Assembly: GCA_013044195.1 (NCBI GenBank)
Contig: JABEUV010000043.1
Span: forward strand, 1 to 42,459
DNA from: Elusimicrobiota bacterium
GTDB lineage: Bacteria; Elusimicrobiota; Elusimicrobia; UBA1565; UBA9628
Length of the DNA stretch: 42,459 nt
Direction of reading: 5' to 3'
Shown here piece by piece: positions 7,525 to 15,463 of this stretch (its first letter is position 1; each line of letters starts with the position of its first letter). A program made the position numbers and the translations under genes. The notes under the pieces are model-generated. The model was not told the origin of the DNA. It saw only the letters and a program-made list of their open reading frames with translations, and searched no databases.

Positions 7525-7761
7525 ATGAACAACGATCAATTCAAAGGAAAATGGATGCAGTTTAAAGGCGAACTCAAGAATAAGTGGGGGAAGTTCACGG
7601 ACGACGACTTGCAGCAGATCCAAGGCAACTATGAGAAGCTGGTGGGCAAGGCCCAGGAACGCTACGGCGACAAGAAAGACGAAGTTCTGAAGTGGAGCGA
7701 CCAGTGGCACCAGCAGCCCGCGCAGTCGAAAAAAGAACACACGACTCTACGGCCCCATTGA
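7525..7761 (+). CDS. CsbD family stress-response protein
   Basis: MNNDQFKGKWMQFKGELKNKWGKFTDDDLQQIQGNYEKLVGKAQERYGDKKDEVLK; SD upstream. Confidence 0.95.
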   Translation: MNNDQFKGKWMQFKGELKNKWGKFTDDDLQQIQGNYEKLVGKAQERYGDKKDEVLKWSDQWHQQPAQSKKEHTTLRPH

Positions 7762-7784
7762 ACGAACAAGGAAAGGAGAAGATA

Positions 7785-8342
7785 ATGAAAATAAAGACAG
7801 GCATCGTATCGTTGTGCGCCGCGATGTTGATGGCCGCGACGCTCGTAAGTTCGGTGGTGGCGGCATCGGGAGATTCCGAGATGTCCGACACATGGATCAC
7901 CGCCAAGACCAAGATGTCCTTGTCGGCTGACCAGCGGGTCAAAGGACGCGACGTCAAGGTCGAAACGGAGCAGGGCCAAGTATTCCTGCGCGGGAAAGTC
8001 GATACGGCCGAGGCCAAGACCGCCGCGGAAGAGATCGCAAAAGGTATCGACAACGTCAAAAGCGTGAAAAATGAGCTCCAGGTCGTGGCTCCTTCCGAGC
8101 GAGAGGAAGTCGCGGTCAGCGATGAGGTCATAACCAAGCGCGTCAAGAAGAGCTTCGCCAAGCACCGCGCCCTACGCAAAGCGGGCATCGACGTCACGAC
8201 CAATGACGGCGTCGTCACGTTGACGGGCGAAGTTGCGAACATCACGACGAGCGCCGACGCGTCCTGGTCCGCTCGGAAGGAATCGGGCGTCAAGTCCGTG
8301 AAAAATGACCTGACGCTAAAGGATACAGCCAAGGCCTATTGA
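7785..8342 (+). CDS. periplasmic BON-domain (OsmY-like) protein
   Basis: Signal peptide; two BON-type repeats 'DRVKGRDVKVETEQGQVFLRGKVDTAEAK' and 'AGIDVTTNDGVVTLTGEVANITTSADA'; aaggagaag SD before ATG 7785. Confidence 0.9.
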   Translation: MKIKTGIVSLCAAMLMAATLVSSVVAASGDSEMSDTWITAKTKMSLSADQRVKGRDVKVETEQGQVFLRGKVDTAEAKTAAEEIAKGIDNVKSVKNELQVVAPSEREEVAVSDEVITKRVKKSFAKHRALRKAGIDVTTNDGVVTLTGEVANITTSADASWSARKESGVKSVKNDLTLKDTAKAY

Positions 8343-14379: not shown

Positions 14380-14575
14380 CGATCACGGTCGTTCGCCGTT
14401 CCCCTATGTTGACGATCGTTTGAATTCCTCTTGACGGGCGCGTCTCTGTCATCACTCCGTCAAAATAAAGTCAGGGTTCCTCAATCGACTCGGCGGCGCG
14501 CAAGTCTTAGACTGCGCTGACGAGAAAACGGAGGCCCGCCTCGGCGGGCCGACCAAGATAACCGATGGAGGAATC

Positions 14576-15361
14576 ATGCCTGAAGTGATGAGCAAGAAGG
14601 TCGTCGCGATCGACTACCCGCGCGCGAACGAGACGATCAAGTCCGACAATTACACCTTCCGCGTCGAGGCGATGGAAGGCGCGACGAACGTTGAAGTCTC
14701 GATCGACGACGCGGCCTTCGAGCCCTGCCGCCAGGCCGGAAACTCCTGGTGGTACGATTGGTCGGGCTACGGCTCGGGCGATCACGAGATGACGGCGCGC
14801 GTGCACTTGGCCAACGGCCAGCACCACACGACCGAGCACCGCGACTTCACCGTCGAGCTCGAGAACGCCGATTGCTCCCAGAACGGGGGCGAGAGCCGCA
14901 CGATCTCGGCGCGCCGCGCGCAGCAGTATCTGGGCCGTCCGGACGCGCACAAGTGCATGATCAACAAGTACGTCGTCGCCGTACCGAACAAGCCGGAAAT
15001 CATGCGCCAGCTGACGGAGCTGCTCTCGCAGGAAGGCGTCAACGTCCACAGCATGCTCATGCAGTGCGTCGGGGACGTCGCGACCTTCAAGTTCCTGGTC
15101 GAGAAGGAGCAAGGGCTGCGCCAGACGCTGGAGTCCGCGGGCTTCCATGTCGTCGAGGACAAGGTGTTCTGCCTGGACCTGCCCAATCGACCCGGTGAGC
15201 TGGATCAACTCGCGCAGAAGCTGCTGGACCAGGGCGTCGCCATTCGCTACATGTATGGAACATCGCACGGCCAAACGACGAAGGTCGTCCTCTCCGTCGA
15301 TCGGCCCGAAAACGCGGTCGGCGTCGTCCGCGAGCTCGGAAAGCAGTTCGCCGAAGCTTAA
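14576..15361 (+). CDS. Ig-like domain plus tandem ACT-domain protein
   Basis: N-terminal 'IDYPRANETIKSDNYTFRVEAMEGATNVEVSIDDAAFEPCRQAGNSWWYDWSGYGSGDHEMTARVHLANG'; C-terminal 'KYVVAVPNKPEIMRQLTELLSQEGVNVHSM' and 'FCLDLPNRPGELDQLAQKLLDQGVAIRYMY' ACT repeats; no signal peptide. Confidence 0.75.
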   Translation: MPEVMSKKVVAIDYPRANETIKSDNYTFRVEAMEGATNVEVSIDDAAFEPCRQAGNSWWYDWSGYGSGDHEMTARVHLANGQHHTTEHRDFTVELENADCSQNGGESRTISARRAQQYLGRPDAHKCMINKYVVAVPNKPEIMRQLTELLSQEGVNVHSMLMQCVGDVATFKFLVEKEQGLRQTLESAGFHVVEDKVFCLDLPNRPGELDQLAQKLLDQGVAIRYMYGTSHGQTTKVVLSVDRPENAVGVVRELGKQFAEA

Positions 15362-15379
15362 GCGCCGGAAAGCAGGAAA

Positions 15380-15413
15380 GAGGGGCGCGTTCCCGTCCGG
15401 GAACGCGCCCCTC
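15380..15413 (+). terminator. strong hairpin after the Ig-ACT gene
   Basis: gaggggcgcgttccc-gtcc-gggaacgcgcccctc, perfect 15-bp stem, 4-nt loop. Confidence 0.75.
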
Positions 15414-15463
15414 TCGGCCGCGTGGCGACGCTCGAGCCGCCGAACTTCATGACGATCGCGGCG

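What the first reader, a model, noticed from the sequence alone, without database searches (positions are those of the whole stretch)
14576..15361. Unusual fusion of an Ig-like domain to tandem ACT domains in a protein without signal peptide
The N-terminal ~100 aa read as a beta-sandwich of the type normally seen outside the cell (YTFRVEA..VEVSIDDAAFEPC..WWYDW), followed by two ACT-like repeats of the amino-acid-sensing type (KPEIMRQLTELLSQEGVNVHSM; RPGELDQLAQKLLDQGVAIRYMYG). It is a stand-alone monocistron flanked by a leader hairpin and a perfect 15-bp terminator, so it looks like a highly expressed regulator or binding protein of unknown function.
Basis: partly seen in the sequence, partly recalled or inferred. 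Interest (0 to 1): 0.6.

Follow-up and report, generated by a model that had tools for sequence, protein, structure and literature searches.

The report
Cytosolic Ig–ACT fusion protein in Elusimicrobiota
A 261-residue protein joins an immunoglobulin-like module to a pair of amino-acid-sensing (ACT) domains; the module belongs to an undescribed family found almost only in one bacterial phylum, repeatedly linked to glycogen and sugar-phosphate enzymes, so this protein may tie amino-acid status to carbohydrate metabolism.

Summary
The ORF at 14576-15361 is conserved (60-63% identity in four congeneric genomes), lacks a signal peptide, and has a confidently predicted Ig-like sandwich (residues 9-94) followed by a BT0572-like ACT pair (128-258). 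No sequence library assigns the N-terminus above its cut-off (Pfam Big_7 falls just short). The module is a family essentially confined to Elusimicrobiota: 116 of 199 genomes across the phylum, one copy in most non-class genomes, up to ten matches per genome near the window. It is cytosolic: relatives are fused to glucose-6-phosphate isomerase, transaldolase/isomerase and a sugar nucleotidyltransferase, or sit beside glycogen branching enzymes of two unrelated types. In one genus with reduced genomes it decays together with GH57 genes. A lone non-Elusimicrobiota copy lies in a protein with a starch-binding CBM53. The ACT fusion occurs in 9 of 56 genomes of the order; a tenth carries the two halves as adjacent genes, sister to the window clade. 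Best reading: an amino-acid-responsive adaptor whose Ig module docks on alpha-glucan or its enzymes. The module's metabolic link is well supported; ligand and mechanism are inferred. The fusion gene itself has no glycogen neighbours. 'Highly expressed' is untested.

The parts
14576..15361 (+). Ig-ACT-ACT fusion gene, 261 aa, ATG start
   Evidence: full-length homologues at 60-63% identity
14600..14857 (+). Ig-like module (residues 9-94) with family signature P15, Y26, R29, C51-R52, W58-W59-x-D61-W62, G68
   Evidence: AF2, Foldseek, alignment of 81 relatives
14858..14956 (+). linker (residues 95-127), low confidence, length variable between orthologues
   Evidence: pLDDT 43-69; alignment
14957..15139 (+). 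first ACT domain (about residues 128-188); loop NKPE, without the usual PG
15140..15349 (+). second ACT domain (about residues 189-258); keeps the NRPGEL loop
14482..14513 (+). conserved promoter-like block CAATCGAC-N12-AAGTCTTAGACT (-10-like TAGACT)
   Evidence: CAATCGAC identical in five orthologues; exact pattern once in the genome
14533..14550 (+). leader hairpin GGCCCGCC/GGCGGGCC
   Evidence: z -1.7; hairpin at the same place but of other sequence and length in orthologues
14567..14572 (+). ribosome-binding site GGAGGA
   Evidence: identical in five orthologues
15379..15414 (.). 16-bp hairpin between convergent genes, probable bidirectional terminator
   Evidence: positional counterpart in L036, L037, L007
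13861..14313 (-). neighbour: MscL mechanosensitive channel, divergent
   Evidence: Pfam PF01741
15464..15994 (-). neighbour: secreted-type cytochrome c, convergent
   Evidence: Pfam Cytochrome_CBB3

Best explanation
The gene encodes a cytosolic two-module adaptor. The C-terminal ACT pair (BT0572-like, expected to dimerise) senses a small ligand, most likely an amino acid through the intact second ACT loop, and the N-terminal Ig-like module docks the protein on a carbohydrate-metabolism target, either alpha-glucan itself or a sugar-phosphate/glycogen enzyme. It arose within the order by joining a stand-alone Ig gene to a neighbouring stand-alone ACT-pair gene, and would report amino-acid status to carbohydrate storage or use. 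Shown here: architecture, conservation, cytosolic family context, adjacent split genes, and the family's linkage to branching enzymes and isomerases. Inferred: ligand, target and direction of regulation.
For: Architecture and fold. Split adjacent Ig and ACT genes in G036 (L011/L039), whose Ig is sister to the window-genus fusions (support 88/92), and Ig-ACT-ACT gene rows in G026 and G032. Cytosolic Ig family tied to carbohydrate enzymes: fused to bifunctional transaldolase/phosphoglucose isomerase or isomerase (L061, L063, L065, L144-L147, L149-L151), to a nucleotidyltransferase-family protein (L148); adjacent to GH57 1,4-alpha-glucan branching enzyme in L124, L130, L138 and to GlgB in L140; beside GlgX (L048), GH13 (L132) and, two genes away, alpha-glucan phosphorylase (L047). 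Co-retention with GH57 in genus g48: 15 Ig+ genomes all GH57+, 26 of 27 Ig- genomes GH57-, Fisher 1.6e-10; the MutS control gives 0.05; the three genomes with broken Ig genes also keep only broken GH57. Phylum-wide, 115 of 116 Ig+ genomes are GH57+; the exception G048 has its Ig beside glgB. L079, outside the phylum by record name: four Ig copies plus starch-binding CBM53. Precedent: some GH77 enzymes carry an N-terminal Ig-fold domain presumed to bind alpha-glucan (PMC11046441).
Against: The fusion gene itself has no glycogen or sugar-phosphate neighbour in the window or in L036-L038, L044, L046. The Ig fold is closest to sulfite-oxidase dimerisation and FnIII-like domains, not to a carbohydrate-binding module. 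Many genomes have GH57 without Ig (genus g31, f16-f18). Other Ig genes sit beside SMC, response regulators, Hsp20 or superoxide dismutase. Co-loss in reduced genomes may reflect general shrinkage. No ligand is known; the first ACT loop is degenerate.
Confidence: 0.35

Rival explanations
1. The Ig module is a protein-protein dimerisation or scaffold domain, as the like-folded domain of sulfite oxidases is. It merely oligomerises or anchors whatever it is attached to, and the ACT fusion is an oligomeric amino-acid-binding protein with no special tie to glycogen.
For: Best solid fold match by TM-score is the Mo-co dimerisation Ig domain of sulfite oxidase 6y0k (TMq 0.78), also the top sequence-profile hit although not significant (E 0.095). 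Partners and neighbours of the family are diverse, including SMC, response regulators and an NTP transferase.
Against: It does not explain repeated linkage to two unrelated branching-enzyme families or the co-retention with GH57. Conserved aromatic and charged residues are dense on the WWYDW strand, more than core packing seems to need.
Confidence: 0.35
2. The protein belongs to a general stress or dormancy response: Ig and ACT proteins are members of a stress-gene group (Hsp20, Dps, YtxH, CBS, response regulators), and the carbohydrate linkage is secondary.
For: Ig genes beside Hsp20 (L040, L042, L059), Dps-like protein, CBS and YtxH proteins and response regulators (several of these read by eye from sequence); superoxide dismutase downstream of the fusion in L036 and L037; MscL next to the window gene.
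Against: The ancestral single-copy Ig in distant families has no stress neighbours, the enzyme fusions are metabolic, and response regulators are also common among control genes (3 vs 6).
Confidence: 0.2
3. A chance gene fusion with no dedicated joint function: two common small domains became one reading frame and were kept neutrally.
For: The fusion is rare (9 of 56 genomes of the order) and its neighbours are not conserved.
Against: Sixty percent identity kept over both modules in five species, with a conserved promoter block; fused or adjacent Ig-ACT arrangements in several separate clades.
Confidence: 0.1

Closest known systems
ACT domain pair family PF19571 (ACT_8): BT0572 (PDB 2f06), YdjB (PDB 9vp8)
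   Same: ACT pair over the Pfam cut-off; Foldseek 2f06 E 1.4e-9, TMt 0.72; 9vp8 TMt 0.73
   Different: Those chains are 144 and 129 residues, too short for an added module; here an Ig module is fused in front and the first ACT ligand loop is altered
Bacterial Ig domains Big_7 (PF17957) and FnIII-like modules of CbhA (3pdg)
   Same: Same fold; weak sequence similarity (best E 2e-4)
   Different: Below the curated cut-off for the window protein; those are modules of secreted enzymes, this family is cytosolic with its own CR...WWxDW signature
Mo-co oxidoreductase dimerisation domain (PF03404; sulfite oxidase 6y0k, 1sox)
   Same: Fold (TMq 0.72-0.78)
   Different: No significant sequence match (one of 81 members at E 0.03) and no molybdenum enzyme attached
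Cytosolic beta-sandwich modules of alpha-glucan enzymes (CBM48 of GlgB/GlgX; N-terminal Ig-fold of some GH77)
   Same: Ig-type sandwich working with cytosolic glycogen enzymes; GH77 Ig-fold presumed to bind alpha-glucan (PMC11046441)
   Different: Not CBM48 by sequence (1 of 81 members, E 0.007) and not among the top 50 by fold; usually a separate protein, not part of the enzyme

Membership tests
ACT domain pair (ACT_8, BT0572-like) | Profile match over the curated cut-off across both domains | tested here: met
   33 bits vs 23.5, residues 129-253
ACT domain pair (ACT_8, BT0572-like) | Fold matches 2f06/9vp8 | tested here: met
   Foldseek E 1.4e-9 and 3.2e-7, TMt 0.72-0.73
ACT domain pair (ACT_8, BT0572-like) | Binds an amino acid at the ACT interface; intact loop glycine | tested here: inconclusive
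   Second ACT keeps NRPGEL, first has NKPE; binding not testable here
Big_7 bacterial Ig domain | Profile match over the curated cut-off | tested here: not met
   18.8 bits (whole) and 21.7 bits (domain) vs 24.1; the four-copy L079 protein passes, 33.2 bits
Ig-like fold (superfamily level) | All-beta sandwich matching solved Ig/FnIII-like domains | tested here: met
   pLDDT 91.6, pTM 0.80; TMq 0.74-0.78 to 3pdg, 6y0k, 9kvu
CBM48/CBM20 alpha-glucan binding modules | Profile or fold match | tested here: not met
   CBM_48 matched by 1 of 81 members at E 0.007; none in the listed Foldseek hits
CBM48/CBM20 alpha-glucan binding modules | Binds glycogen or maltodextrin | not testable with these tools
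   needs a binding assay
Mo-co oxidoreductase dimerisation domain | Profile match, C-terminal to a molybdopterin domain | tested here: not met
   1 of 81 members at E 0.03; no such domain in the window protein
Secreted or surface Ig protein | Signal peptide or transmembrane anchor | tested here: not met
   N-terminus read by eye; relatives fused to cytosolic isomerases

The most novel reading that the evidence does not exclude
The WWYDW Ig module is a new, Elusimicrobiota-wide cytosolic alpha-glucan-binding or glycogen-enzyme docking module, and the Ig-ACT fusion is an amino-acid-gated regulator of glycogen or sugar-phosphate metabolism, a control link not described before.
Probability: 0.25. 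Interest if true: 0.7.

Novelty: new variant of a known kind. Interest (0 to 1): 0.5.

Why it matters
A single-domain cytosolic Ig protein conserved across one bacterial phylum, in one copy in most of its deep lineages, decaying together with glycogen enzymes and fused to isomerases, is unusual and was not found described in the papers searched. It offers a simple, testable hypothesis: a new glycogen-associated module. The ACT fusion would then be a direct physical link between amino-acid sensing and carbohydrate storage in a phylum with very few cultured members.

Tried and rejected
The first genome-contig scan, with the single protein, found nothing; the alignment-based scan succeeded. No plasmid match. 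NCBIfam gave only chance hits for the query. Foldseek against viral proteins gave generic Ig/FnIII matches of no use. A search for a regulon sharing the promoter block found only this gene. RNAalifold of the leader gave no real covariation support, one compensatory pair. Literature: no paper found on DUF4912 function, no mention of glycogen in the Endomicrobia genome-reduction paper, none on a cytosolic Ig family in this phylum. Considered and dropped: secreted protein (no signal, cytosolic fusions); misassembly (five species share the frame).

Full report
Observation. The ORF 14576-15361 (+) encodes 261 aa from ATG behind GGAGGA. It is a real gene: full-length homologues at 60-63% identity occur in four other genomes of the genus (G016, G007, G001, G009), with a conserved promoter-like block (CAATCGAC in all five) and ribosome-binding site. 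The N-terminus lacks a signal peptide by eye.

Domains. Pfam assigns the C-terminal half to an ACT pair (ACT_8, 33 bits against 23.5) and leaves the N-terminus just under the Big_7 cut-off. AlphaFold2 with 53 aligned sequences gives pLDDT 88.6 with an unordered linker at about 95-127; the Ig domain alone, with 81 sequences, gives pLDDT 91.6 and pTM 0.80. Foldseek puts the ACT half on BT0572 (2f06) and YdjB (9vp8), and the Ig half on sulfite-oxidase dimerisation domains, CbhA FnIII-like modules and a bacterial Ig domain. The second ACT keeps the usual NRPGEL loop, the first has NKPE; the other fusions also depart from PG in the first loop, except G043 (L013) and G039 (L015). So the second site is the likelier ligand site (inference).

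The Ig module is a family of its own. A scan of 84,980 species genomes with its WW[YF]DW motif returned 47 loci, named Elusimicrobia/Elusimicrobiota or unnamed bacteria apart from two: a Parcubacteria record whose contig shares three neighbour families with Elusimicrobia loci (probably misbinned) and a Phycisphaerae record (L079). The scan used one DNA-level motif, so divergent relatives elsewhere could be missed. Within the phylum, 116 of 199 genomes have it, in 53 of 65 genera, with one copy in most genomes outside the class and up to ten matches near the window (the matches include ACT-pair genes). Twelve columns are at least 90% conserved, including C51-R52 and W58-W59-x-D61-W62.

It works in the cytosol, around carbohydrates. 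Relatives are C-terminal extensions of bifunctional transaldolase/phosphoglucose isomerase (NCBIfam equivalog, 1027 bits), of stand-alone isomerase, and of a nucleotidyltransferase-family protein. Where not fused, the gene follows the isomerase (L133, L135, L136) or lies between DUF4912 and a GH57 branching enzyme (L124, L130), after GH57 in L138, and beside GlgB with GlgX nearby in L140. Branching enzymes of two unrelated families being neighbours in three taxonomic families (f23, f6, f5) argues for a functional link. Other neighbours: GlgX (L048), GH13 amylase (L132), alpha-glucan phosphorylase two genes away (L047), phosphoketolase (L003). In a count of immediate neighbours against genes at least four positions away in the same loci, GH57, GH13, RpiB and pyruvate kinase occurred 3, 3, 5 and 3 times in 121, and none of them reached two in 121 control genes. 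RpiB and pyruvate kinase come from inherited gene order in one group and are not independent.

Co-retention. In genus g48, which includes strongly reduced genomes, 15 of 42 genomes keep an Ig gene or remnant; all 15 also keep a GH57 gene or remnant, against 1 of 27 others (Fisher 1.6e-10). The three genomes with a broken Ig (G123, G149, G221) keep only broken GH57. Glycogen synthase (PF08323) follows less closely (10 of 15 vs 1 of 27); the one control, MutS, barely does (p 0.05). Genomes are not independent and shrinkage alone links losses, so the p-values are descriptive. Across the phylum, 115 of 116 Ig+ genomes have GH57, and the exception, G048, has its Ig beside glgB. The reverse does not hold: genus g31 and families f16-f18 keep GH57 mostly without Ig.

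Outside the phylum. L079 encodes a 1325-residue protein with four Ig copies and a starch-binding CBM53 (42.8 bits vs 27.6). It is on a 4.7-kb contig, so its host is uncertain, but the company is again alpha-glucan. A review notes Ig-fold domains on some GH77 enzymes, presumed to bind alpha-glucan (PMC11046441).

The ACT fusion. Nine of 56 genomes in the order carry it, and G036 has the two halves as adjacent genes. In the Ig tree the fused rows form three groups; G036 is sister to the window group (support 88/92). One origin is not excluded, because the backbone is poorly resolved. In G026 and G032, Ig and two ACT-pair genes stand in a row. The fusion gene itself has no carbohydrate neighbours: MscL, nitroreductase and cytochrome c in the window, superoxide dismutase in two orthologues, a glycosyltransferase-2 protein in L046.

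Mechanism. I take it as an adaptor: ACT pair senses, Ig docks. The docking target, glucan or enzyme, is inferred from family context and not shown. A pure dimerisation role for the Ig domain is about as likely. The 3' hairpin is a plausible bidirectional terminator; high expression is untested.

Noticed in passing
L144-L147, L149-L151, L061, L063, L065: Ig module fused C-terminally to transaldolase/phosphoglucose isomerase or isomerase alone, with rpiB and pyruvate kinase alongside in most of the transaldolase-type loci.
   Followed up: yes
L079:568-4545: 1325-aa protein from a Phycisphaerae-named contig with four copies of the Ig module alternating with an unassigned domain, then CBM53; host of the 4.7-kb contig uncertain.
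   Followed up: partly
L124, L130, L138, L054, L073, L075, L077: DUF4912 proteins near the Ig gene (next to GH57 branching enzyme in three loci); in L124 and L138 their C-termini weakly match an Ig-like glucodextranase domain B. No paper on DUF4912 function was found.
   Followed up: partly
L054:1356-1652, L067:3038-3268, L073:5641-5871, L075:5512-5808, L077:3128-3421: Small conserved protein (about 77-99 aa) near DUF4912 and response regulators; the L054 copy has no Pfam match.
   Followed up: no
L148:5026-6237 (-): Ig module fused to the C-terminus of a mannose-1-phosphate guanylyltransferase-like protein; unfused Ig genes lie beside similar genes in L002 and L056.
   Followed up: partly
L075: Contig filed under Parcubacteria GW2011_GWF2_45_11 carries an Elusimicrobia-like gene neighbourhood; probably misbinned.
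   Followed up: partly
L113-L127: In family f15 and related families the single Ig gene mostly lies upstream of an SMC gene and often downstream of an epimerase, a KBL/serine-palmitoyltransferase-like gene and a GNAT-like gene, a context with no obvious glycogen link.
   Followed up: no
window 7758-8342: Exported protein that by eye resembles the BON/OsmY type, a possible stress gene; not checked by domain search.
   Followed up: no
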